A stretch of 64,000 nt of DNA, from positions 124,001 to 188,000 of the forward strand of contig JACJWN010000006.1 in assembly GCA_020637165.1 (NCBI GenBank), written 5' to 3'. Every line of letters begins with the position of its first letter. Position 1 is the first letter of the stretch. The notes below the pieces were generated by a model. The model saw only the letters and a list, made by a program, of their open reading frames with translations. It searched no databases and had not been told where the DNA came from. The position numbers and the translations under genes were made by a program. This document shows, one piece after another, positions 30,278 to 62,601 of this stretch. Source of the DNA: Mycolicibacterium sp. (GTDB lineage Bacteria > Actinomycetota > Actinomycetes > Mycobacteriales > Mycobacteriaceae).

Positions 30278-31966
30278 TCAGAACATTTCCCGAATCCCGT
30301 CGCGGATCGCCGCCTGGGCAGCCACGTCGGATGCGTTGTAGCGCAGACACCACTGCCGGGCCTCCAGCGCATCAGGGCCCTCGCCGCGGGCAGTCTCGAT
30401 CTTGTTCATGGACAACCGGCCGCCCGGGTCGTCCACGGCCCAGACGAATCCGAACAGCTGCGCAACATGCTTGATGGAGGCCTCCCTGCGAACGCGGAAG
30501 GTGGAGTTGAACCAGGTAAGCAGGTCCAGTGTGACGCCGTCGAGTGCGGCGGTCATGCAAGCGAACTTGCGGGTCATGCTGACTTCGACGTGATGCCAGT
30601 GGTACACGGCCACGGTCCGGCCCGTCCGCTCGGCCTGTTCGCGCAGATCCGCGATGACGGCGGCTGCCCGCTCGGCCAGAGCCAGTTCCGCTGCGTCGTC
30701 GAGGGTTTCGAAGGACACCACCGGTTCGTAGCGCGCCGTGCGGTCATCCTGGCCATCGCGGACGCGCATACCCCACTGGTAGATCCTGCCCGCGGTGTCC
30801 CACTCGATGTCGAAGTCGATCTCGATGTCGGCGGCCGGGACCTCGATCGGGGTGTCGTCGATGGGCTCGACGTCCACACCCTCGCAGGCCATCCGGGCTT
30901 GGCGCACCGCGGCGCGCAGCCGCTTGCGCGCTTCCTTGGGGCTGCGGTGGGTGACCTCGGGGTAGTACTCGTCGAAGAACGCGGAGTCGTCGAGATCCAG
31001 CGCGGCCAGGGCGCCGGTGGTGCTGATGCCCATGCTCCGCAGGGTTCGCCATTCCCGGAGATCGAGGCGGTCGCGGGTGACCGTGGCCGACGCGTCGTCC
31101 GGTCCCATCTGTTCGGCGCAGAACAGCTCGTAGGGGCACTCCCCGCATTCCTTCTGGCCGATCGGGACGACGAGCGGGTCGGGATCGGCCGCAGACCCGG
31201 TGATGCGCAGGGCCGTGGTCGCCACCTTGACCCGGAAGCCGTGCTCGTGGTCGTAGCTCTCCAGCACCGACCTCTTCACCTTGCCCCGACTGCGCGAGAA
31301 GGTCGGACGGGTCCGCCTGCTCAGGTCGAACCAGACGAAGACGAGTGCCGGCTCTCCCCCGGGCTCGGCGAGCTGGCTGGTGCCGATGACCGCCCCGAGC
31401 GGTTGATCGTCCCCGGGGTGAAAGCCGCCGGCTTGCAGCATGCGCATGTAGTGCGCCAACTGCAGGCCGTCCTGGAAGTGATGCGTACTCGCCGTCAGCC
31501 CCGGCGCGTCCCACCAAAGGGCAGGCCGGGCCAGCGAGGACACCCGCATGGACGTCTTCTTGGCCGCGTCCACCGTCTTGTGGTGCTTGACGTCGGCGGG
31601 CAGGTAGCCGCCGTCGACCTTCACCAGGACGTCAGGTTTGCCGGTACGCCCGCCCGCCTCGTCGTCGGGCAGCCAGCCGCCCAGAATCAACGGGGCCCCG
31701 GACTGCATTGCCGCCACGGTGTGCCCGATAGCGTCGTCCTTGCGCAGCGCCGGGTCAATCAGCACCGCGGAGCCGGGGTGTAGCCGGAGCAGTTCGGCGA
31801 ACACCTCCTCCTCGAAGTGTCGGCCGGCGTCGAGGTCAGCCTGCATCTCTTCCGACGGTTCCCACACCAGGCGTGGCACCAACGGCGCGAAGTCGTTGTG
31901 GGTGCGCACGGGACACTGCTTGGCCGCGTACCCGCCGAGAAGGACCGGCTTCTGCGCTTCGGTCAC
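30278..31966 (-). CDS. TM0106-type RecB-like nuclease with C-terminal exonuclease-like domain
   Basis: A 562-residue protein with two nuclease-like parts. The N-terminal half has a RecB/Cas4-type PD-(D/E)xK core: GKPDVLVKVDGGYLPADVKHHK at residues 109-130, with Asp112, Asp125 and Lys127. A Cys cluster (KECGECPYELFC, near 280-290) resembles the iron-sulfur or zinc ligands of this family. The C-terminal half (EIDFDIEWDT, near 385) looks like the start of a DEDD 3'-5' exonuclease domain. TM0106-type proteins are thought to act in DNA repair or defence. The GTG at 31966 was chosen. A duplicate of its last 15 codons lies at 23541-23612. Confidence 0.85.
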   Translation of the reverse strand: MTEAQKPVLLGGYAAKQCPVRTHNDFAPLVPRLVWEPSEEMQADLDAGRHFEEEVFAELLRLHPGSAVLIDPALRKDDAIGHTVAAMQSGAPLILGGWLPDDEAGGRTGKPDVLVKVDGGYLPADVKHHKTVDAAKKTSMRVSSLARPALWWDAPGLTASTHHFQDGLQLAHYMRMLQAGGFHPGDDQPLGAVIGTSQLAEPGGEPALVFVWFDLSRRTRPTFSRSRGKVKRSVLESYDHEHGFRVKVATTALRITGSAADPDPLVVPIGQKECGECPYELFCAEQMGPDDASATVTRDRLDLREWRTLRSMGISTTGALAALDLDDSAFFDEYYPEVTHRSPKEARKRLRAAVRQARMACEGVDVEPIDDTPIEVPAADIEIDFDIEWDTAGRIYQWGMRVRDGQDDRTARYEPVVSFETLDDAAELALAERAAAVIADLREQAERTGRTVAVYHWHHVEVSMTRKFACMTAALDGVTLDLLTWFNSTFRVRREASIKHVAQLFGFVWAVDDPGGRLSMNKIETARGEGPDALEARQWCLRYNASDVAAQAAIRDGIREMF

Positions 31967-32068
31967 GGTGCCATGCTCCCCCTGCCCCCTGCCCATTGCC
32001 CGCTGCTGCGGTTCCGTTGATTGTGACCCACTTCGTTGTCAACCTGCGGCGGTCACACACTCGTTGAC

Positions 32069-34134: not shown

Positions 34135-37100
34135 TCAGGCCACGGCCGCCCGCGACGCCATGAAGATCTCCGTCGGCATGGGCCGGCGCAGCCGCCAGGT
34201 GACCGCCATCGGGCGGCTGCCCTCGTGCTTGACGTAGTCGGCGGGTCCGAGGAAGACGTACGGTGCGGCACCGAGCTGGTTGGTCTTGGTCTCCCGAACA
34301 AACAGCAGGATGTTCGTTCCTTGGCGACGGTGGTTGATGTAGCGCTGGCCGGTCGGAGAAGTGGCGTTCGTTGTCGATTGGGATTCCCAGTGGAAAAGCT
34401 CCGGGCTGATCGCGAAGTCGCGGTACATCGTCGTCGGCGAGTAGTCGGTGTCGGTCTTCTTCAGGGTGATCAACAAGACGTCGGTGTTGATGTCCGGGCA
34501 CCACGCGACACCCTCCCGCATGGTGTTCGGGGTGCGCCGTTGGGATGTCCATCCCACGGCGGCGAGAATCTCTTCACGCGAGTAGCTGGCGTGGACGGCG
34601 AGGGGGACCTCGGAGAGCACCGGCAGCAGATCACCCAGCCGGGTCGTGGGCCGGTGCGCGGCATTGAAACCGATGTCGACGACTTGGCGCAGTTCGTCGA
34701 AGACCGGTTGGTCACGGAGTTCCCAGAGCGCGTCGGCGGCGTTCGCGTATCCCCCGCCGTCCGGGAACAGCGAGAAGAACAACATGTCCGCCAGCCGGGA
34801 CTCGAGGGGGCTGCCGGCTTCGACGGCGGAGCGAAGGATCCGGACGTATTCGTCGCGGCGAAGCCTGTCGTCGACGTGCGCGACGGCGCGGACACGTTTG
34901 ACCAGATCACTCTCTCGATGGCCGGTCGGGGCGTCCAGGCGGCCGGCGTCACGGCATAGCGTTGTCCACGACCGTCCGTTGCGGAGGATGTCGGCCAACT
35001 CGCGTCCGGATTCCTCCAGGAAGGACGCCAGGTCGATGTCGGGGTGGGACCGTACCTCTGAGATCAGGGCATTCCAGCGTGGGGAGACCTGCTGTCGGAT
35101 GTTCTCCAGCACCACATCGCGAGCAACGGGATCGAGGACGATCTGGCTGCCCGAGGGCAGAAACGGAAACCCGTGTTCGACCTGACGGGCGAGTTCTTTG
35201 CGCCCCAGTCCGGTCAGGGCCCGGAAGCGTTGATCGAAGCGGAATTCCTTGCGCTGGTGGCCGACGAAGTCCAGGGCCGTCAGGACCGTCTTGCCGGGGG
35301 CTGAGCGCAGACCACGTCCGAGCTGCTGCAGGAAGACCGTGGCGCTTTCGGTGGGTCGCAGGAACAGCACGGTGTCCACGTTGGGGATGTCGAGGCCTTC
35401 GTTGAACAGGTCGACGGCGAAGATGACGTTCAGTTCGCGGTCGCGCAGGTCGGCCAGCGCTGCCCGCCGGTCGCTGCCCGAGGTTTCGGCCGACACCGCC
35501 CGAGCGGGGATGCCAGCGGCGTTGAACCGTTCCGCCATGTAGCGGGCGTGCTCGACGCTGACGCAGAATCCCAGGGCGCGCATTTGCCGCACGGCCTCGA
35601 CCTTGTCGTTGAGTTCCTTGAGGATGATCCGGGTCCGAGCGTCGTTGCCGGTATAGATCCGGCTCAGTTCTGCGGGGTCGTATCCCCCACGCTTCCAGGC
35701 GATCTTGTCGATCTCGGTCGGGTCGAAGATACCGAAGTAGTGGAACGGGCAGAGCAGCTGTTGATCGAGGGCGTCCCACAATCGCAGTTCCGCCGCGACC
35801 CGGCCGCCGAAGAACTCGCGGACGTCCACCCCGTCGGCACGTTCGGGGGTGGCGGTCAGCCCCAGCAGTTCCATCGGCGCCACATGGTCGAGCAGCCGAC
35901 GGTAGGACTTGGCCTCCGCGTGGTGGAATTCGTCGACGACCACCACATCGAAGCGATCCGGCGTAATGCCGTCCAGCCGGGCCTGGGAGAGGGATTGAAT
36001 GCTGGCGAAGACGTGACGCCACTTCCTCGGCTCCTCCCCGTCGACCAGTAACTCCCCGAATGTCGGTTCGGTGAGCACCTCCTGGTACATCCGACGGGAC
36101 TGCAGCAGGATTTCCTTGCGGTGGGCCACGAAGAGCAAGCTGAGGTTCCGGCCGTGCAGTTCCCGCAGCCGCCGGTAATCCAGCGCGGCAACAACAGTCT
36201 TGCCGGTGCCGGTGGCCGCGACGATGAGGTTGCGGTGCCGATCGTGCAGTTGTCGTTCGGCCTCGAGTTGTTCGAGCATCTCGGCCTGGTAGGGCTTGGG
36301 CTGCACTTCCAGCCCGGACAGTGTGATGACAACCCGTTCGTTGGTTTTCTTCCCCGAGGCGATGTCGAGGGCTTCGCGGAGCCTGTCGCCATCGTCAGCC
36401 GGCCGGTAGGGCTCGAACTCCCGGTTTTCCCAGTAGGACTCGAAGGTAGCGCCGAACTTGTCCAGCAGGTGCGGCGTCGAGACTGCCGACAGGCGGACGT
36501 TCCACTCCAAACCGTCGACGAGCGCAGCGTGGGAGAGGTTGCTCGAGCCGACGTAGGCGGTGTGGAACCCGGTGTTGCGATGCAGCATCCAGGCCTTGGC
36601 GTGCAGCCGGGTCCGGTTGATCTCGTAGTTGATCCGGACCTCTGCGCCGAAATCGTTGACTAGGGCATCGAGCGCCCTGGCATCGGTCGCGCCGAGGTAG
36701 GTGGTGGTGATGACGCGCAGCGGCACATTGCGGTGTTTGAGCTCCGTGAGCTCCTTCTCCAGCAGCCGCAACCCTTGCCACTTGACGAAGGCGAGCAGCA
36801 GGTCGACCTGATCGGCGCTGGCCAACTCGGCCCTGAGTTCGGCCGCCAGGGTGGGCTCGTCGCGGGCGTTGGTCATCAGGGCGGTGTCCGACAGCGGGGT
36901 CGCGGGCCGGACGAAGCGCGATGAGTCGGTGATCCCAGCGGGCATGACGGCGTTGAGGCGTTTGATCCGATCCGGCTCTATCTCGTAGAGAACTTCTTGA
37001 AGTGCCTCCGGGTCCGGCAAAACCGAGAGGATGTCACGGACTAGAGAGGTCCGGGCCTCGGGCGTTCTGGCCGTCCGCAGTGTTCGCTCGATGAGGCCGG

Positions 37101-37311
37101 CCAGATGTCGGGCGACGATCTGCGGCTGCTCCCCCTCGTCGACGTCCTTCAGGTCCGCTACCTGGTCAACATTGGCATCAAGCAGTTGTTTGAGACGTGC
37201 GGTCAATAGCGACTCGTAGACCCCCGGTTTCACGGTTCGGACACTAACCGCTGGGTGGGACAAACGGTCGATGATCAGGCGGAGCTCTTGAAGAACTGCC
37301 GGCTGTGCCAC
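34135..37311 (-). CDS. PLD nuclease-like/superfamily II helicase/DUF3427 protein
   Basis: A 1058-residue multidomain protein. Residues 140-300 form a phospholipase D-type domain with H237-A-K239 and GSSN (255-258), one HKD half-site. Residues 335-740 are a DEAD/DEAH (ResIII-type) helicase: Walker A AATGTGKT at 365-372, DEFHH at 460-464, and QQLGRGLRS near 695. The last 290 residues match DUF3427 (YSPTTMYRDFAISPELFHWESQS and FLGPADYVKHEGSRPM). This layout occurs in bacterial defence islands. The GTG start lies inside the 3' end of the HNH gene (37-base overlap, shifted frame), so the two were probably made together. Confidence 0.9.
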   Translation of the reverse strand: MAQPAVLQELRLIIDRLSHPAVSVRTVKPGVYESLLTARLKQLLDANVDQVADLKDVDEGEQPQIVARHLAGLIERTLRTARTPEARTSLVRDILSVLPDPEALQEVLYEIEPDRIKRLNAVMPAGITDSSRFVRPATPLSDTALMTNARDEPTLAAELRAELASADQVDLLLAFVKWQGLRLLEKELTELKHRNVPLRVITTTYLGATDARALDALVNDFGAEVRINYEINRTRLHAKAWMLHRNTGFHTAYVGSSNLSHAALVDGLEWNVRLSAVSTPHLLDKFGATFESYWENREFEPYRPADDGDRLREALDIASGKKTNERVVITLSGLEVQPKPYQAEMLEQLEAERQLHDRHRNLIVAATGTGKTVVAALDYRRLRELHGRNLSLLFVAHRKEILLQSRRMYQEVLTEPTFGELLVDGEEPRKWRHVFASIQSLSQARLDGITPDRFDVVVVDEFHHAEAKSYRRLLDHVAPMELLGLTATPERADGVDVREFFGGRVAAELRLWDALDQQLLCPFHYFGIFDPTEIDKIAWKRGGYDPAELSRIYTGNDARTRIILKELNDKVEAVRQMRALGFCVSVEHARYMAERFNAAGIPARAVSAETSGSDRRAALADLRDRELNVIFAVDLFNEGLDIPNVDTVLFLRPTESATVFLQQLGRGLRSAPGKTVLTALDFVGHQRKEFRFDQRFRALTGLGRKELARQVEHGFPFLPSGSQIVLDPVARDVVLENIRQQVSPRWNALISEVRSHPDIDLASFLEESGRELADILRNGRSWTTLCRDAGRLDAPTGHRESDLVKRVRAVAHVDDRLRRDEYVRILRSAVEAGSPLESRLADMLFFSLFPDGGGYANAADALWELRDQPVFDELRQVVDIGFNAAHRPTTRLGDLLPVLSEVPLAVHASYSREEILAAVGWTSQRRTPNTMREGVAWCPDINTDVLLITLKKTDTDYSPTTMYRDFAISPELFHWESQSTTNATSPTGQRYINHRRQGTNILLFVRETKTNQLGAAPYVFLGPADYVKHEGSRPMAVTWRLRRPMPTEIFMASRAAVA

Positions 37312-38008
37312 TCGACGTGGTGCGGGCTCGGTGCGGGATGACGCGGGGCTGGGTCCAACAGCGGTCTCGAGTCGAGGCTGTAGACGAGACGATCCCCTTG
37401 CTCACTGCGGGATACATAATGCGGCGAGACACGGACCGTCAGATCGGCGCTCAGGCCGAGCGCACCCAGGTCGAAGAGCACGTGATGGATCGCGCACAAC
37501 GCAAGGCCGTTGTCCGCCTCGTCGGTACCGCCCTGGGAGTGCCAGACCACGTGGGCGGCGTCCAGCCCGGCGGGATCGCGGCCCATGGCGCCGTCATAGC
37601 CGCACATGGCGCAGCGGTTGCGCCAGCCGTGAAGAACCTCGCTACGAAATCCAGGACGCCGACGGGGACGGGAGCGTTTGTGGTGCTGCCACGTCGCCTC
37701 CTCCGCCGCCTCGAGGTCCAAGCCCACATCCGCGCAGATCGGTTCGAGATAGGTCGGGGTGAAGTTGAGGTCGATCAGCAGCCGCGCCGATTCAGCCAGA
37801 AGAGACGGGTCCTTGCGGAGGAGATCCTCGACTTCCGGGCGGAGCCGACCCCTGGCGTGGGCCCGGCACAGAGCAGAGCGGGTGTCTTTGAGCGCCTCGC
37901 CGGCGTCGCCGTCGAGCTCCCACAGCTCAGACTCCAGATGGACGAACGGCATCGCCGCGCGGTACCGGTTCGTCGAGGGCGGTCCGAAATCATCGAGCAG
38001 TCGGCTAA

Positions 38009-38030
38009 TACTGCAGCCGTAGATCGTGGT
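38009..38030 (+). repeat. IS701 left inverted repeat
   Basis: Identical over 22 bases to the reverse complement of 39416-39437. Preceded by CTAA. Confidence 0.93.
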
Positions 38031-39355
38031 CATTGGTTTTCCCGTCGTCGGTAGTGGGATTGGCGGGCGCGGTATTGGTGTTGTCGGCGCCATTTGGACC
38101 AGGCCAGCAGGGTGGCCAGGGTGTGGTTGGTGTGCAGGAGCAGGGCGTCGAAGAGCCGGCGAAACTCGTTGACAGTCAACCTGATCAGGCCGGCGACTGA
38201 GGGCTGGGCGTCGCGTTCGATGGCGGTGGCCACTGCGAGGAACGCGTGGGCGAGCATGGCCAGGGTGGTCCAGCGGTGCCAGGAGCACCAGCGCCGGACC
38301 TGGTGCTGGTCCAGACCGACCAGACCCTTGGCCGCCTGAAAGGACTCCTCGATACGCCAGCGCTGTCCGGCCACGGCAACCAAGGTGCGTAGCGGGACGG
38401 GTCGGGGGCTGTAGCAGCGCAGGTAGGCGTGCTCGCCGGTGCGGTCGTTGCGGCGGATCAGCAAATGATGGATGCCGGGGTCGGTGTCGTCTTCGGCGAG
38501 CAGCCGGAACCAGGCCCAGGAGTACATCCTTGGCCCGTGTGCGCCGGCGCCGGCGGAGTGGCGCTGCCAGGCATGCGGTGGGATCAGCCCCGGCAGGGCA
38601 TCGACGCGCAACGGGCCGGCGCCGGTAGGAACCCGCCGGTTGGCCGCGATGGCCATCACATAGCCCAGGTTGTGGGCGCGGATGGCTGCCCGCAGACGCG
38701 GGTCGGCGCCATAGACCTCATCACCGGTCACCCAGGCAGCGGGAACGCCTGCGGCTACCGCCCGGTCGATCAGTTGCTTCGCCAGTTCCGGTTTGGTCGC
38801 AAAGCCACACTCGCTCTGAGGGATTCCCGCATCAGCGCAGCGGCCGGGGTCCTCGGTCCAGGACTTGGGCAGATACAAAGCGCGGTCGATCAGGGCGTGT
38901 CCGCGCGGGGCTGCGTAGGTCAGATATACCGCCACCTGGGAGTTCTCAATGCGCCCGGCCGTCCCGGAGTATTGCCGTTGAACCCCGACGCTGTGGGTGC
39001 CTTTCTTGACATCTCCGGTCTCGTCGACGACCAGGATCGCCCCTGGGTCGCCGAAGGCGTCGATGACGTAGTCGCGGACATCGTCACGCACCGCCTCGGC
39101 ATCCCAGCGGGCCCGGCCCAGCAGGTGCTGAAACGCGTGCGGCGTGGCGGCGCCACGGTGCTCAGCGATGGTCCAGCAATTTTTTCGATCCAGGCCCGAG
39201 ACCATCCCCGCGAGTAACTCGCCGGCATGGCGCAGTGGCTCGAAACGGGCAAAACGCGGCGCGATGCGATCCAGCACCGCGGTGAACTCAGCCTGCCAAC
39301 GCTGGGGGTCTACGCTATGAACCGCGGCGATCGCGGCATATTCAGATGTCTTCAC
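38030..39355 (-). CDS. IS701-family DDE transposase
   Basis: A 441-residue transposase. The acidic residues are visible in VVDETGDVKKGTHSVGVQRQ (Asp), WVTGDEVYGADPRLR (Asp) and RWRIEESFQAAKG (Glu), in the IS701 order. The stop overlaps the last base of the inverted repeat. The reading frame is intact, so the element may still be mobile. Confidence 0.93.
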   Translation of the reverse strand: MKTSEYAAIAAVHSVDPQRWQAEFTAVLDRIAPRFARFEPLRHAGELLAGMVSGLDRKNCWTIAEHRGAATPHAFQHLLGRARWDAEAVRDDVRDYVIDAFGDPGAILVVDETGDVKKGTHSVGVQRQYSGTAGRIENSQVAVYLTYAAPRGHALIDRALYLPKSWTEDPGRCADAGIPQSECGFATKPELAKQLIDRAVAAGVPAAWVTGDEVYGADPRLRAAIRAHNLGYVMAIAANRRVPTGAGPLRVDALPGLIPPHAWQRHSAGAGAHGPRMYSWAWFRLLAEDDTDPGIHHLLIRRNDRTGEHAYLRCYSPRPVPLRTLVAVAGQRWRIEESFQAAKGLVGLDQHQVRRWCSWHRWTTLAMLAHAFLAVATAIERDAQPSVAGLIRLTVNEFRRLFDALLLHTNHTLATLLAWSKWRRQHQYRARQSHYRRRENQ

Positions 39356-39415
39356 AAACTCCGAACAATGCCGCGGTCACCGCTCTGACCAGTGCAGACA
39401 CGCCGAATCCCACCA

Positions 39416-39437
39416 ACCACGATCTACGGCTGCAGTA
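39416..39437 (-). repeat. IS701 right inverted repeat
   Basis: Mirrors 38009-38030 exactly and is followed by the CTAA duplication at 39438-39441. Confidence 0.93.
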
Positions 39438-39689
39438 CTAACGGGTTTTTCGGCCTCCTCGTAGGTACACGCCGAGGTCCCCTGCTGCTGTAGCCGGCCG
39501 AGCAACCAGAGCAGAAGCAGCGGCTTGTGCGGATATCGCTCGCCGCGGCCGCGGGGGGCCATTCGCAGGGTAGCCAGTTTTTCTAGGAATTCCTCCCGCT
39601 GCACACATCAAGCTTGGCAAAGAAGCATGCCCGACGCCGGCGGATTCACCGCTGTGATGTCGTACCAGCGGCGTATAACCATCCAGAAC

Positions 39690-40334
39690 ATGAATCCAGG
39701 AGCAGCCCAGTTGACTATTCAGGACGATATTTCCCGCTACTTGACCGAGCCGATCCTTACCCGGGCGGAAGTGTTGGCGCGCCCGTCACCGGTTCCGCAA
39801 CAGCCCGGCGTCTATGGATGGTGGTTCCGTGAGCTTCCCGCCAAGATCGACGTGCGGGAGTGCATCTCCCGCGACGGCTTGACACTCTTGTACGCCGGTA
39901 TCAGCCCGAAGAAACCGCCTACCAACGGACGCGGGCCCAGCCGACAGACTCTTCAGTCCCGGATTAAGACTCATTACACCGGCAACGCCGAGGGATCGAC
40001 ACTGCGCCGTACCCTCGGATGCCTGCTGGCCTCGGAATTGGGTATTGAGCTACGCAGGTTTGGATCCGGTACGCGTCTGCATTTTGGATTCGGCGAGCAG
40101 GCCCTCTCCCGGTGGATGGATCGCAACGCCTACGTCTCCTGGCTCTCAATCGCGCAGCCCTGGTTGCTCGAGGACCAGATCCTGGCCACGCTGGACCTTC
40201 CACTGAACCTGGACCAGAACCACCACAATGCATTCCACTCGACCCTGACCGAAGCCCGCGCTGCCGCCGCGTTGCGAGCGCGGTCCTTGCCAGCGCTGCC
40301 GAATCCGGGTGTCGGGGGAAGCGGGATCGATTAG
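39690..40334 (+). CDS. GIY-YIG nuclease-like protein
   Basis: A protein of about 214 residues. PGVYGWWFRE and, later, LLYAGISPKK give the GIY and YIG-like strands of the GIY-YIG fold. QTLQSRIKTHYTGNAEGSTLRRTLGCLLA supplies the conserved Arg region, and SWLSIAQPWLLEDQILATLDLPLNLDQN the Glu/Asn end of these nucleases. The start is uncertain: ATG 39690 is used, with TTG 39711 (AGGAG upstream) and ATG 39627/39657 as options. It is divergent from, and adjacent to, the split HNH gene, so it may belong to the same defence module, but it could also be independent. Confidence 0.75.
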   Translation: MNPGAAQLTIQDDISRYLTEPILTRAEVLARPSPVPQQPGVYGWWFRELPAKIDVRECISRDGLTLLYAGISPKKPPTNGRGPSRQTLQSRIKTHYTGNAEGSTLRRTLGCLLASELGIELRRFGSGTRLHFGFGEQALSRWMDRNAYVSWLSIAQPWLLEDQILATLDLPLNLDQNHHNAFHSTLTEARAAAALRARSLPALPNPGVGGSGID

Positions 40335-40997: not shown

Positions 40998-41864
40998 TCA
41001 GTTGATCTCGCAGGCCACGGGGTGATGGGTGTGGCTGCACCCGGCAGCGTACTCCGCGGGGGTGAGGTAGCCCAGGGCTGAATGGCGGTGGGCGGTGTTG
41101 TGCTCGTGCTTGTAGTCGGCGATGGCCACTCGGGCCTCGAGCACGGTGGTCCAGTGGTTGCGGTTGAGACACTCCCGGCGCAGCCGGTTGTTGAACGACT
41201 CGATGAACCCGTTGTTCCACGGGGTACCCGGAGGAATGTAGACAACACCAACCATGCCGACGCAGAACTGTTGCAGCGCTTGAGAAATCATCTCCGGGCC
41301 GTTGTCCATCCGCAGCACCATCGGCGGCCCGCCGGCTGCGGTGAAACAGCGTCGCAGATCCTCAATGAGCCGCTCGGCGGTGATCGAGCGCTCCACGATG
41401 TTCAGCAGCGACTCACGGGTGTGTTCATCGACCATCGAGGCGATCTTGATGGCCTTGCCATCCATGGTGGAGTCGAACTGGAAATCCAGCGCCCACACCA
41501 CCTTGGGGGCATCAGCGCCGACCTGCGGCACCGAAGATTCCCCGACACGCTTGCGCCGGCTGCGCACCCGGCGCTGCAGGCCCTCCTCGACCCACAGCCG
41601 GTGGACCTTCTTGCGGTTGACCACCTGCTGCTCGTCGTAGCGCAACCCCGCCCAGGCCCGCCGGAACCCGTGACACGGATTGCGCTGGGAGTAGCTGCGC
41701 AGCCACTCCCGCAGCTGTGCATCCGGATCGGCCGGAGTCTGGGCCGACGGGAGGCGCCGGTAGGTCGAGCGGGACAGCCCGACCGCCTTACACGCCAACC
41801 GCTCAGACATGCCCTTGACCCTCTTGAGCATGTCCACGGCGCGGCGCTGGGCAGCCGGGCTCAA
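40998..41864 (-). CDS. IS3-family transposase orfB
   Basis: A 288-residue integrase-core transposase: VWALDFQFDSTMDG (Asp), LRMDNGPEMIS (Asp) and IESFNNRLRRECLN (Glu) give the DDE triad. It is read after a -1 shift from orfA; the switch region is an A4T4 run at about 41863-41870 (orfA ends AAG-GGA-AAA-TTT-TGA, while orfB runs AAA-ATT-TTG). It resembles the IS407 subgroup. Confidence 0.9.
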   Translation of the reverse strand: MSPAAQRRAVDMLKRVKGMSERLACKAVGLSRSTYRRLPSAQTPADPDAQLREWLRSYSQRNPCHGFRRAWAGLRYDEQQVVNRKKVHRLWVEEGLQRRVRSRRKRVGESSVPQVGADAPKVVWALDFQFDSTMDGKAIKIASMVDEHTRESLLNIVERSITAERLIEDLRRCFTAAGGPPMVLRMDNGPEMISQALQQFCVGMVGVVYIPPGTPWNNGFIESFNNRLRRECLNRNHWTTVLEARVAIADYKHEHNTAHRHSALGYLTPAEYAAGCSHTHHPVACEIN

Positions 41865-42151
41865 AATTTTCCCTTCGCCACCTCCCGCAGGGCGTCCTTC
41901 TCCAGCTCAGCCTCGGCCAGCAGCCGCTTGAGGCGGGAGTTCTGCTCACGCAGCTCCTTAAGCTCCTTGGCCGCGTTGACGTCCATGCCGCCGTAGGCAC
42001 GTCGCCAGTTGTACAGCGTGGCCGCCGAGACCTCCAGCTCGCCGGCGATCTCCTCGTTGGTCCTGCCCGCCGCGGCCAGTTCATCGGCACGGCGCAACTT
42101 GCGCACCACGTCCTCCGCCGAATGCTTCTTCCGACCAGCCATGTCCTTCAT
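41861..42151 (-). CDS. IS3-family transposase orfA
   Basis: A 96-residue protein with a Tc3/HTH-type DNA-binding region (AEDVVRKLRRADELAAAGRTNEEIAGELEVSAATLYNWRR) and a leucine-zipper-like tail (LKELREQNSRLKRLLAEAELEK). The ATG at 42151 follows GGAAGGGAC. It probably makes a fusion with orfB by -1 frameshifting. Confidence 0.9.
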   Translation of the reverse strand: MKDMAGRKKHSAEDVVRKLRRADELAAAGRTNEEIAGELEVSAATLYNWRRAYGGMDVNAAKELKELREQNSRLKRLLAEAELEKDALREVAKGKF

Positions 42152-42219
42152 CGTCCCTTCCAGCCCCTCCACGGGCCACAGGACTCTAAAACAAGGCGGA
42201 CTCACCTATGGGGAACACG

Positions 42220-59226: not shown

Positions 59227-59783
59227 CCGGAATTTGTCAAGGTGTTTGAGTCCAGCGGGTGTTAGGCGGCTGTCGTCTTGTTCTCCGGTTCTGCCGGTTT
59301 TGGCGGGTTGATCGCGGCGGTCTCGGGTAGGTCGATGATCTTGGGTGCGGCATCGGCGCTGAAGCGGTGCCGGTGGCGTGCTCGGGCCTCGGCGAGCACG
59401 GCGCGGCGCTGGGTGTCCTTCTCGGTGGCCAGGCCGTAGAAGACGTCGGCGGGGGTGTGCAGGCCGATGCCGCTGTGGCGGTGCTCGTGGTTGTACCAGG
59501 CGACGAATTCGTCCATGAAGTCCCGTGCGTGGTGGATGGATGCGAAGCGTTCCGGGAAGGCCGGGGCGTACTTGAGGGTCTTGAACCAGGACTCGCTGTA
59601 GGGGTTGTCGTTGGAGACCTTGGGCCGTGAATGCGAGCGGGTCACCCCCAGTTCGGCAAGTAGCCCGGCGACGCTGTTGCTGGTCATCGAGGTTCCCCGG
59701 TCGGCGTGCACGACGTGCGGGATGCCGTAGGTGCCGAAGATCTGCTCCATCATCTCGGTGGCCAGCACCCCGCACTCGCGGGC
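59227..59783 (-). mobile_element. 3' fragment of the second IS3-type element
   Basis: The right end CCGGAATTTGTCAAGGTG... is present at 59227 and the sequence matches the end of the copy at 45634-47190 in reverse orientation. Identity stops abruptly at 59783 (…GCGGGC) where the SIR2-type gene sequence begins. About 1 kb of the element is missing. Confidence 0.85.
59262..59783 (-). pseudogene. C-terminal fragment of IS3-type orfB
   Basis: About 173 codons from RECGVLATEMMEQIFG to the end, closely matching the intact orfB at 46142-47155 with a few substitutions. It lacks the first catalytic Asp and cannot act. Confidence 0.85.
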
Positions 59784-62601
59784 CAAACCCCTCGACGAAA
59801 TCCTCGGCAAGATCAATGACGAACACGGGGTCGATGTACACCAGCGGATACACGAACTGACTTCGAAGAAAGGCTCTCAGCCCAGCCCGCTTCACGCCGC
59901 AATAGCCCGACTTGCATTCGCGTCGACCATCCGCATTGTCACGACGAACTACGACCATCACCTCTCGACGCTGCTCGGCGATGGGGCGACCGAGTACCTC
60001 GCTCCCGCGCTCCCAATGGGCGATGACTTCACCGGCATCGTGTACATCCACGGTCGATTGGATCAGGAGAGCCGGCGATTGGTTTGTACCGACGAGGATT
60101 TCGGCAGGGCCTACCTAACGGACGCCTGGGCTGCCCGATTCCTCGACCGTATGTTCGCCACGCACCCCGTCCTTTTCGTGGGTTACAGCCACAACGACAC
60201 GATCATGAAGTACCTCGCACGAGGACTCGGTGGCAGGTCGGAGAAGCGCTACGCACTAACCGCTGACGCGGATTCTCCGTTATGGAGGCAACTCGGCATT
60301 ACACCAATTGAGTGTTCCTACGACGACCAGCCAGTGGTGCTCAACGACTGGGCCGCACTAGCTTCCGAAGGGCTGTTGGGTCATCGTGCTCGCGTCAAAG
60401 CTCTCGTAGCCGAACAAGATCCAACACCCATCCCCGATGCCGTCTCGTACCTCGAATCGGTCTTAGGAGACAAGAACACTGTACGGTTCTTTACAGAGTT
60501 TGCGCGTGGCAAGGCGTGGCTTCAATGGGTTTCCGGGAGAACGGAGTTCGCCACGTTGTTCCGGCCGGCACCTTCAGTGGACCCCGATGTCACGTATGCT
60601 CTTGCGACTTGGTTCGCCGACAACTACGTCAATGACGAAGAAGTTTCCGACGTCGCGTTCCAAATATTGGCTGAGTCCGGCCCGCATCTGGTCGATGACT
60701 TTGCCTTTACGATATGCCGGCAGCTTTCCCGGCTCCAATGTCCGCTGTCACAGCGTGCGCGCCGCTGGCTCCTTCTCGCCGCAGGCAGTTCCGAGAGCCG
60801 ATCTCAGGTCACCCTGCTCGCATCAGTGGTTAACAGTACGTCTCTAGCTCACGATCCAGAGACGGCGCTGTTCCTCTTCGACTACCTGACCGAACCACGA
60901 GTTGCTGCCTCCGGCAGGTATTTTGGGGCCACCTTCGAAGCAACCACCCGAGAGAACGACTCCATGCTTCGCTTGAATTGGGAAAACGCGTATCGGCCCT
61001 TCCTCGACCACTACGCCGGTCAGCTTCTTGCGATCCTCGATCGCCATCTTCGCCGGGCAGATTTGCAACTCACCCTCGCAGGCGAATCAGATCGCGAGCG
61101 CCCAAGTCTATGGCGCCCCTCCATCTCCATTGCGGAGGACCACCAACTGGGCACACCGCTTGGATTCCTAATCGATGCCGCGCGAGACTGCCTCGAGTCA
61201 CTTCTTGCAGAACAGAATCCAGCAGTCGACAGATACCTAGAAGCGTGGGCCGTGAACGACGTAGTGTTGTTGCGCCGCTTAGCAATACATGGCTGGACGA
61301 ACCGGACTGACAAGACCTCGTCGGAGAAGCTGCAATGGTTCCTAGGCACTGAGTGGCTACACTCGCTCGATCTACGCTCCGAGGCATCCCGCCTTATCGT
61401 CGAGACAGCCGGTTCGGCGGATCCCCAATCCGTGACAACGCTCATCGCCGATCTTCTGGCACATTCTGAGGATGACGGGTTCGGGCCGTGGCGTGCTGCT
61501 GCCCTGTTGACCGCCATCAAAGATGCCAACCCAAACCTGCCAGTTGTAGACGAAGCGCTCGCGACCCTCGCGGTATCTCATCCTGAGATTGCCGAACAAG
61601 ATGTTGGCAGCAGGTCGCAGGAACCGTCGGCATGGGATGGGGCACCGCCCATGGATGTCGAACAATTGCACCAAGAGCTCGGCGAGGCACCCGCCGCAAC
61701 GGGGTCCGCATTGATCGCATGCGAGGCAGAGACTGCTGGGTGGGAGAATCAGAGACGTTGGGAACAACTCGCTGGTTCGATTAGCGCGCTCTCACCCAGC
61801 AGTACCCAGCAGATGGTTTCGCGCTGCTTGATTCGATCGGATCAGGACACCCGGAGATTTCGAACGCGATCGTCCGCGGTTGGGCCCGAACAACGGCAAA
61901 TGAGTCCATCGTTGCGCAAATTCTGACGCGGATAGCGCATCTCGAACTCAACCCAATCCTCGGGGAGGTTACCTCTATGCTCGGCGGCTTCGGTTCTCCG
62001 AGTCAACCCCCGGGCTGGTACCGATTCGAAGAGAGTGTCGAACTCGCCCAGATGTGCTGGGAGGCAATTGATCCTGGCACCACCAGTGCATTACCAGATG
62101 GCAGTGATTTCCTAACCAATGCGATCAATCACCCTACAGGCCAGTTGGCAACATACTGGGTGGACAGAATCGGTCATTTATGGCGGGATGCCGCCGAGGG
62201 CTGGAACGGCATCCCACCCGATTTGGCCGGCTATCTCGCGGAGCTGAGTGCGCATGACGACACGCGAAGCGAGGCCGTCAGAACCGTCTTCAGCGCCTAC
62301 TTGGCGTTCTTCCACGCCGCAGATAGACAGTGGTGCAAGCAGTTCTTGATGCCGATGCTGGACTGGAGCGACCCACGCATGGCCCGGATAGCTTGGACGG
62401 GATACCTGTCACAGGGGCGAGGCAGCGATGAACTCCTGGCAGATGGGTTCCTCGACCTGCTGATAGAGGCACTCGGTCATCGTCACGAGCTTTTTCCCGG
62501 GGCCGCAAGCAATCTGACTCTGCTCCTTGCCAAGATTGCGGTCGAAGCTGGTGTCGACCCTGGCACGTGGATCAACACCTTTGTCACGGCCGGCTCAGCC
62601 C
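59784..62601 (+). pseudogene. SIR2-DUF4020 defence-type gene, truncated at both ends by IS fragments
   Basis: A reading frame of about 940 codons with no start. It opens inside the protein (AKPLDEILGKINDEHG) right at the IS end. The SIR2-like NAD-binding domain is partly kept: IVTTNYDHHLSTLL, VYIHGRLDQESRRLV and PVLFVGYSHNDTIMKYLAR. The N-terminal glycine-rich NAD motif is lost. The long helical region ends with DUF4020-type NAINHPTGQLATYWVDRIGHLW. A frameshift at about 61,800 moves the frame: QYPADGFALLDSIGSGHPEIS continues in the second one. The end is cut by the IS at 62602 before a natural stop. Intact relatives are anti-phage SIR2 NADases. This copy should be dead. Confidence 0.8.

What the first reader, a model, noticed from the sequence alone, without database searches (positions are those of the whole stretch)
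34135..40334. Candidate defence module: SBD-HNH nuclease + PLD-helicase-DUF3427 + GIY-YIG protein
The helicase gene starts inside the end of the HNH gene (37-base overlap), so the two were translated together. A GIY-YIG-like nuclease lies directly upstream in the opposite direction. Three different nuclease folds with one helicase in 6 kb is not a layout I can name. It may be a modification-dependent restriction system.
Basis: partly seen in the sequence, partly recalled or inferred. Interest (0 to 1): 0.8.

Follow-up and report, generated by a model that had tools for sequence, protein, structure and literature searches.

The report
Three-nuclease modified-DNA restriction locus, broken
Three DNA-cutting enzymes that probably recognise chemically marked foreign DNA sit side by side in a Mycobacterium genome; the same trio recurs in shuffled order in other actinobacteria, but here one of the three is broken by a jumping gene.

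Summary
The observation largely holds. The helicase (34135-37311, minus) is a SauUSI-type Type IV restriction enzyme: PLD, SF2 helicase, DUF3427. The HNH gene is a phosphorothioate-DNA restriction endonuclease (NF045808, SBD-HNH) split by a recent-looking IS701-family insertion (38009-39437, 4-base target duplication). The divergent gene is a GIY_YIG_2 nuclease that appears intact.

The claimed 37-base overlap is probably a start-codon artefact: the family-typical start lies 41 bases after the HNH stop. Real 4-base overlaps couple these genes in relatives.

In 397 genomes of the order, 26 carry this HNH type; 14 of these also have the helicase, and in 8 of the 14 the two lie within 2 kb (about 0.02 expected). 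All three genes are clustered in 7 genomes found here, in four arrangements. A metagenome relative has the window's layout with an uninterrupted HNH.

Each gene was more often found without the others, and 0 of 23 further HNH loci from a phylum-wide panel carry the helicase or GIY gene. dndC was not found in this genome. Best reading: a facultative cassette of separately acting modification-dependent nucleases, a new combination of known parts. One integrated machine is not excluded.

The parts
34135..37233 (-). SauUSI-like helicase-nuclease (PLD + SF2 helicase + DUF3427), from the family-typical GTG start; the open frame reaches to 37311
   Evidence: Pfam; PADLOC mREase_IV 1082 bits; PDB 7clg E=7.8e-80; start choice
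37275..38008 (-). C-terminal part of the SBD-HNH gene (rest of the SBD and the HNH_2 nuclease), separated from its start by the IS
   Evidence: HNH_2; NF045808 202.6 bits over model positions 51-284
38009..39437 (-). IS701-family insertion sequence, 1429 bases, 22-base inverted repeats; transposase 38030-39355
   Evidence: NF033540; ends and target duplication; second identical copy
38005..38008 (.). target-site duplication CTAA, left copy
39438..39441 (.). target-site duplication CTAA, right copy
39438..39604 (-). N-terminal part of the SBD-HNH gene (start of the sulfur-binding domain)
   Evidence: 91% identical over 56 residues to the N-terminus of the uninterrupted HNH in L201
39605..39689 (.). 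intergenic region between the divergent HNH and GIY genes, presumed promoter region
   Evidence: sequence; no promoter test done
39690..40334 (+). GIY_YIG_2 nuclease, apparently intact
   Evidence: PF20815; conserved residues

Best explanation
This is a restriction-only (Type IV) locus assembled from three nucleases, most likely each with its own way of sensing or attacking foreign modified DNA. The SBD-HNH protein would bind a phosphorothioate (sulfur-modified backbone) site and cut nearby. The SauUSI-like protein would use its DUF3427 domain to find modified cytosine, translocate with ATP and cut with its PLD domain. The GIY-YIG protein would be an accessory DNase. The three are carried together as a facultative cassette in some actinobacteria, sometimes with coupled reading frames, giving layered defence against DNA with different marks. 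In this Mycobacterium the SBD-HNH gene is interrupted by an IS701-family insertion, so at most the helicase-nuclease and the GIY protein still work. Shown here by sequence: domain content, the IS break, and recurrence of the cassette in shuffled order. Inferred from family knowledge: the substrates and the cutting. Inferred without direct evidence: that the three act independently rather than as one complex, and the role of the GIY protein.
For: Families: PADLOC mREase_IV 1082 bits over 133-1055; PDB 7clg, E=7.8e-80, labelled 'Putative helicase' (that this is SauUSI is recalled); NF045808 202.6 bits for the C piece alone and 260.5 for the intact relative L201; an intact relative (L098) matches 5zmm/5zmo (ScoMcrA) and 7cc9. 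The window pieces carry H-K and M-P at the sulfur-pocket positions H116/R117 and Y164/P165 of ScoMcrA (placed by eye); Liu et al. 2018 (PMC6224610, passages) report lysine as usual at 117, R117K as neutral and Y164M as strengthening binding. Linkage: 8 of 14 order-panel genomes holding both genes have them within 2 kb, expected 0.022. All three clustered in L201, L208, L213, L240, L260=L100, L104 and the window. ATGA overlaps in L100, L105, L092 (helicase to HNH) and L104 (HNH to GIY). Independence of parts: 60 of the 75 helicases put in the tree were labelled as without HNH or GIY beside them, 18 of 26 order-panel genomes with the HNH lack a helicase within 2 kb, 72 of 80 GIY loci show no helicase within about 1.1 kb. 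No dndC found in this genome or in 11 other genomes carrying one or more of the genes.
Against: No substrate is shown; these proteins were not tested here and no test of them was found. In a phylum-wide panel 0 of 23 SBD-HNH loci other than the window's hold the helicase or the GIY gene in the stretch fetched (3.5-13 kb), so the linkage is confined to some lineages. The cassette is often decayed: of the 8 adjacent pairs, HNH is broken in 3 (window, L086, L088) and the helicase in 1 (L098). A partner label changes 10 times on a quick helicase tree of 75 rows of which 12 carry HNH, so it is not stably inherited. Co-residence in a defence island could explain part of the linkage: in 4 further genomes the two genes lie 9-52 kb apart on one contig. 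The GIY family has no function known to me and matched no PADLOC model.
Confidence: 0.6

Rival explanations
1. One integrated machine: the SBD-HNH protein senses phosphorothioate and nicks, the SauUSI-like protein is its translocase and second nuclease, and the GIY protein finishes or licenses cleavage.
For: Four-base start/stop overlaps couple helicase-HNH and HNH-GIY genes in relatives; membership kept in four arrangements; other PLD proteins lie frame-to-frame with an SBD-HNH too: a PLD-SNF2 helicase in Euzebya, a PLD protein in L313; in the 80 GIY loci the SBD-type HNH was seen in 5, each time with a helicase.
Against: Each protein is more often seen without the others (60 of 75 helicases in the tree, 18 of 26 HNH genomes, 72 of 80 GIY loci). 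A single polypeptide suffices for SauUSI activity (PMC3874153, passages), and EcoWI is described as a dimer that restricts phosphorothioated plasmid DNA (PMC7461809, passages).
Confidence: 0.25
2. Defence-island neighbours: three independent restriction genes that accumulated next to each other without functional linkage.
For: Parts occur alone; looser clustering at 9-52 kb in four genomes; GIY neighbours elsewhere include other defence-type genes (GajB/UvrD-like 3, PglW 1, DrmD 1, AspBHI-like 1 of 80 neighbours scanned, which list only the first 25 of 95 and 90 families).
Against: Given that both lie within 55 kb, 8 of 12 within 2.5 kb is unlikely (p about 8e-9 by a rough binomial, not corrected for kinship); coupled start/stop overlaps; recurrence in at least three lineages with different order.
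Confidence: 0.15
3. Remnant of a phosphorothioate modification-restriction (Dnd/Pbe-type) locus that lost its modification genes.
For: Rakesh et al. 2024 (PMC10853773, passages) list HKD-SF2 helicases, SBD-SRA-HNH and URI/GIY-YIG nucleases around Dnd cores; part of the helicase matches TIGR04095 'dnd_restrict_1' weakly (80.9 bits, cut-off 600).
Against: dndC (TIGR03183) not found in the whole genome or in 11 other genomes with one or more of the genes (no control genome scored over the cut-off either, so sensitivity was not shown); best helicase family is mREase_IV, not PbeA (1082 against 116 bits); an active phosphorothioate-dependent nuclease would be expected to cut a self-modified host.
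Confidence: 0.05

Closest known systems
SauUSI (Type IV restriction enzyme, PLD-helicase-DUF3427; PDB 7clg by recall)
   Same: Domain order; a near full-length match to a PADLOC Type IV model; residues 145-690 align with 7clg
   Different: Only moderately alike; substrate untested here; sits beside two further nucleases
SBD-HNH phosphorothioate-dependent endonucleases (NF045808; EcoWI and SprMcrA as members is recalled)
   Same: Whole-length model match in the intact relative L201; sulfur-pocket residues kept
   Different: Broken by an IS in this genome; lies beside a helicase-nuclease; unlike ScoMcrA no SRA domain was found in L201 (Pfam)
Nucleases around Dnd cores (HKD-SF2 helicase, SBD-SRA-HNH, URI/GIY-YIG; Rakesh et al. 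2024, PMC10853773, passages)
   Different: No dndC found in this genome; here the three adjoin one another directly
PbeA of PbeABCD
   Same: HKD (PLD) nuclease fused to an SF2 helicase
   Different: Scores far lower than mREase_IV (116 against 1082 bits); the other Pbe genes were not searched for

Membership tests
SauUSI-type Type IV enzyme | N-terminal PLD, central SF2 helicase, C-terminal DUF3427 in one chain | tested here: met
   PLDc_2 31.1 (cut-off 27), ResIII 123.2 (22.5), DUF3427 81.4 (27.7) bits
SauUSI-type Type IV enzyme | ATP-dependent cleavage of 5mC/5hmC DNA | not testable with these tools
   needs biochemistry
SBD-HNH phosphorothioate endonuclease (NF045808) | score over the curated cut-off | tested here: met
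   202.6 bits from the C piece alone (cut-off 180); relatives L201 260.5 and L208 248.8
SBD-HNH phosphorothioate endonuclease (NF045808) | sulfur-pocket residues H116, R/K117, P165 of ScoMcrA | tested here: met
   H-K in the N piece and M-P in the C piece, read apart; H and P invariant and K in 14 of 15 relatives; roles from PMC6224610 passages
SBD-HNH phosphorothioate endonuclease (NF045808) | intact reading frame in this genome | tested here: not met
   IS701-family element inside the SBD
SBD-HNH phosphorothioate endonuclease (NF045808) | cleavage of phosphorothioated DNA | not testable with these tools
   needs biochemistry
Dnd phosphorothioation system | dndC present in the genome | tested here: not met
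   TIGR03183: 0 of 12 genomes, the window's genome (94% complete) included; no positive control over the cut-off; dndA, B, D, E and ssp genes not searched
GIY_YIG_2 (PF20815) nuclease | domain over cut-off with conserved GIY-YIG-type residues | tested here: met
   107.7 bits (cut-off 22.4); R91, E161, N173 invariant in 32 sequences; their catalytic roles are recalled
Obligate three-gene system | the parts always occur together | tested here: not met
   in the samples examined each gene stands more often without the other two

The most novel reading that the evidence does not exclude
The trio is a single multi-nuclease Type IV system in which a phosphorothioate sensor (SBD-HNH), a SauUSI-type PLD translocase and a GIY-YIG nuclease act on the same target. 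It would be a restriction-only counterpart of Dnd-linked nucleases, one in which SBD-HNH enzymes repeatedly recruit PLD-helicases of different families (DUF3427 type here, SNF2 type in Euzebya).
Probability: 0.25. Interest if true: 0.7.

Novelty: new variant of a known kind. Interest (0 to 1): 0.48.

Why it matters
SBD-HNH and SauUSI-type enzymes have been described as single-protein barriers to foreign DNA. A recurring cassette that joins them, with a GIY-YIG nuclease of unknown role, would mean that some actinobacteria screen incoming DNA for sulfur-backbone and base marks at one locus. It gives an unassigned nuclease family (PF20815) a testable setting. It may also bear on how readily such hosts accept foreign DNA.

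Tried and rejected
Joint translation by the 37-base overlap: rejected as a probable start-codon artefact. Dnd remnant: not supported. Universal HNH-helicase pairing: rejected, 0 of 23 phylum-panel loci. Stable vertical inheritance of the cassette: not supported; FastTree run with long branches flagged, 10 changes for 12 HNH-carrying rows of 75. Structural comparison of the GIY and HNH proteins: six prediction requests (five for A3, one for A4) met a full queue and none ran. One family search used a wrong guessed accession (DpdF) and told nothing about dnd genes. Plasmid searches with the intact HNH of L201 and with the helicase gave only matches under 60% identity; five of those places were opened. 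GIY neighbours scanned as a group showed mixed genes, a minority of defence type.

Rows dropped before counts: 38 of 65 genomes matched only the HNH part and one (G360) only the SBD part; the remaining 26 were counted. G230 is counted as adjacent on the strength of a degenerate HNH copy 1.9 kb from the helicase; its whole HNH lies 27 kb away. Neighbourhoods were fetched for 70 helicase loci; 68 of these are among the 100 panel genomes with a match, and two (G027, G002) came. Closeness of HNH and GIY to the helicase for all 100 was read from the coordinates printed, on the assumption that the three calls drew the same 397 genomes (same number and handles). The helicase tree holds 75 rows chosen from loci in hand, not a random sample; L090 was left out by me and L214 did not pass my filter; rows L130, L139 and L110 are labelled 'none' although L130 and L139 have another kind of HNH beside them and L110 an SBD-HNH 9 kb away. 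Of 244 GIY relatives only the best 80 were kept by the tool, and several of those contigs are short. In the gene maps, 8 of 80 loci had no GIY gene called by my simple caller; the tblastn covered all 80. For one search I took neighbours of 180 residues or more that matched none of my queries, 80 proteins from 72 loci.
Full report
WHERE IT IS. The window is G000:C29:124001-188000 of a 3.85-Mb, 32-contig genome. Its genus code g1 also covers G198, whose contig length (352704) equals that of a Mycobacterium sp. GA-0227b contig returned as L211, so the host is placed in Mycobacterium by inference. The species was not identified.

WHAT IS THERE. The helicase frame 34135-37311(-) carries PLDc_2, ResIII, Helicase_C and DUF3427. 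It matches the PADLOC Type IV enzyme model PDLC03659 with 1082 bits over residues 133-1055. Its best PDB match is 7clg, a 953-residue 'Putative helicase' (E=7.8e-80); that 7clg is SauUSI is recalled. A review describes SauUSI as PLD at the N-terminus, a P-loop NTPase in the middle and DUF3427 at the C-terminus, cutting m5C and hm5C DNA with ATP (PMC3874153, passages).

THE HNH GENE IS BROKEN. The C-terminal piece scores 202.6 bits against NF045808 (cut-off 180) over model positions 51-284; the N-terminal piece is 91% identical over 56 residues to the start of the uninterrupted HNH in L201. Between them lies a 1429-base element, 38009-39437, with an IS701-family transposase (NF033540, 421 bits), 22-base perfect inverted repeats and CTAA on both sides. 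A second copy in the genome is identical over the 1428 bases compared, which suggests recent movement. The pieces were never joined. The sulfur-pocket residues of ScoMcrA (H116, R117, Y164, P165; PMC6224610, passages) correspond to H-K in the N piece and M-P in the C piece; that paper reports K in most homologues at 117, no appreciable loss of affinity with R117K, and stronger binding with Y164M.

THE GIY GENE. PF20815 GIY_YIG_2 matches with 107.7 bits. In 32 homologues R91, E161 and N173 are invariant; their catalytic role is recalled from other GIY-YIG enzymes. No PADLOC or NCBIfam match was found, and the best PDB match had E=0.073. Function unknown.

THE OVERLAP. Taking the first GTG, the helicase overlaps the HNH end by 37 bases. 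In relatives such as L119, L122, L124, L127, L152 and L168 the frame itself opens three residues before G(V/L/I)YE; in others the longest frame reaches further up, as here. In the window an in-frame GTG sits at the same distance, 41 bases after the HNH stop; in L201 the matching GTG is 59 bases after, and the peptide between differs in length and letters. The overlap therefore does not show joint translation here, though it is not excluded; L201 also has GTG or ATG choices at -4 and -37. True 4-base ATGA junctions exist in relatives: helicase to HNH in L100, L105 and L092, HNH to GIY in L104.

DO THE GENES CO-OCCUR? In an order-wide panel of 397 genomes the helicase model is found in 100 (E<=1e-60) and the HNH C piece in 65 (E<=1e-10), of which 26 are the full SBD-HNH type. 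Of the 26, 14 also have the helicase; in 8 of the 14 the two lie within 2 kb (match edges 162 to 1896 bases apart), in 4 they are on one contig 9-52 kb apart, in 2 on different contigs. About 0.022 such pairs are expected by chance (Poisson tail 1.5e-18; this treats related genomes as independent, which they are not). Conditional on lying within 55 kb, 8 of 12 within 2.5 kb has p about 8e-9 by a rough binomial. The 8 fall into at least three lineages: Mycobacterium, family code f15 and family code f16. Within the window's genus the nearest helicases found had no such HNH within about 1.5 kb. In a phylum-wide panel of 396 genomes 23 others had an NF045808 match at E<=1e-30, 10 of them over its cut-off, and none of the 23 loci contained the helicase or the GIY gene in the 3.5-13 kb fetched.

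THE GIY LINK. GIY relatives (E<=1e-20) occur in 19 of 397 order-panel genomes; in 4 (window, G322, G237, and G222 with a truncated GIY) the gene adjoins the helicase or the HNH-helicase pair. A scan of genome contigs kept the 80 best of 244 GIY loci. The helicase or a distant relative lies within about 1.1 kb in 8 (L201, L208, L210, L213, L214, L240, L245, L260; in L201 and L260 the HNH lies between), at 7.4 kb in one more (L228), and the SBD-HNH in 5 (L201, L208, L213, L240, L260). In clustering of all genes called in these 80 loci, the helicase cluster (11 loci, including one HIT protein joined to it) and the SBD-HNH cluster (7 loci) were third and fourth in spread, after GIY itself (72) and one cluster that was not identified (12).

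GENE ORDER. Seven genomes hold all three: window and L201 (GIY divergent from HNH, then helicase); L208, L213 and L104 (HNH-GIY-helicase, one strand); L100/L260 (helicase-HNH-GIY); L240 (HNH, GIY on the other strand, a 166-residue frame, then a distant helicase whose frame looks split). L201, a 3.1-kb metagenome contig labelled Actinomycetota, shares the window's layout with 82-91% identity and an uninterrupted HNH; its helicase runs off the contig. The HNH of L213 is frame-broken. Kept membership with shuffled order in several lineages argues for a functional link; frequent solitary occurrence argues against obligate cooperation. A quick FastTree helicase tree of 75 chosen rows needs 10 changes of HNH-partner state for 12 carriers; its long branches make exact numbers unsure.

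NO dndC. dndC (TIGR03183) was not found in 12 genomes tested, the window's included; no control genome exceeded the cut-off either, so sensitivity was not shown in that run, and other dnd or ssp genes were not searched. A published survey of SBD-HNH neighbourhoods found dnd clusters possibly associated in fewer than 3.6% (PMC7461809, one section and passages). Rakesh et al. 2024 (PMC10853773, passages) describe HKD-SF2 helicases, SBD-SRA-HNH and URI/GIY-YIG nucleases around Dnd cores, the nearest published parallel seen.

IS IT IN PRINT? Six searches of the held library were made: phosphorothioate, SBD, HNH and SauUSI together (1 paper); two of SauUSI, DUF3427, HNH (14 papers); three of GIY-YIG, phosphorothioate, HNH, sulfur binding domain (15 papers); GIY-YIG with DUF3427 (0 papers); four of phosphorothioate-dependent, HNH, helicase, GIY-YIG, restriction (26 papers, 15 listed); four of sulfur-binding domain, helicase, operon, phosphorothioat, type IV restriction (22 papers, 12 listed). 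No listed title or abstract opening describes this trio, nor do the passages read in PMC7461809, PMC10853773, PMC3874153, PMC7159879 and PMC12839542. Subscription papers and supplements were not searched, so absence from print is not established.

MECHANISM. Most likely the three nucleases act as separate layers against DNA carrying different marks, kept together as a cassette; probability about 0.6 in this form. A single phosphorothioate-triggered machine is the bolder alternative (about 0.25), encouraged by the coupled junctions and by other PLD proteins lying frame-to-frame with an SBD-HNH gene: a PLD-SNF2 helicase in Euzebya pacifica and a PLD protein in L313. Neither was tested biochemically. 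In this particular genome the phosphorothioate arm is disrupted.

Noticed in passing
L283:1558-5795 (Euzebya pacifica plasmid NZ_CP031166.1): The SBD-HNH gene overlaps by 4 bases (as annotated) the end of a PLD + SNF2-type helicase gene (PADLOC HKD+Snf2 167 bits); a DUF262 gene follows one gene further on. A different PLD-helicase is paired with the same HNH family.
   Followed up: partly
L313:906-2977: A PLD protein, found by motif, whose second half resembles by eye the VTDxxW sensor-like domain seen elsewhere, runs frame-to-frame into an SBD-HNH gene (longest-frame overlap of a few bases; starts not verified).
   Followed up: partly
L139:9118-10143, L240:10701-11603, L223:9360-10730: An HNH_2 protein with an N-terminal part that Pfam did not name in L139 and L240 (motif VTDxxW..NFW by eye) lies beside the same helicase (L139; frames overlap only by longest-frame reading), the GIY gene (L223), or near both (L240).
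   Followed up: partly
L210:4785-9618 and L214: In two Mycobacterium genomes a distant helicase lies directly upstream of the GIY gene (match edges about 100 bases apart); the one in L210 has HIT, PLD, ResIII, S24-like and DUF3427 domains (L214 not scanned). In L253 an HNH-HIT protein lies directly upstream of GIY.
   Followed up: partly
L281:644-5855 (Azospirillum plasmid p7): SBD-HNH gene 28 bases after a strawberry-notch-type gene, as annotated.
   Followed up: no
window 59731-61926 (+): 731-residue protein with a SIR2-like domain (PF13289), weakly like the Dsr1 defence proteins of PADLOC (89 bits over a small part of the model).
   Followed up: partly
window 30278-31996 (-): 572-residue protein with a below-cut-off RNase_H_2 match and a very weak Cas4-like stretch, about 2.1 kb from the helicase gene.
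   Followed up: no
window 40998-42205 (-): IS3-like transposase (rve, HTH_21) with a small frame before it that looks like its partner frame, just beyond the GIY gene, so mobile elements lie inside and beside the locus.
   Followed up: no
G230:C21:4962-5564 (L088), G288 (L086), G184 (L098): Adjacent HNH or helicase genes are broken in these relatives too, so the cassette seems to decay often.
   Followed up: partly
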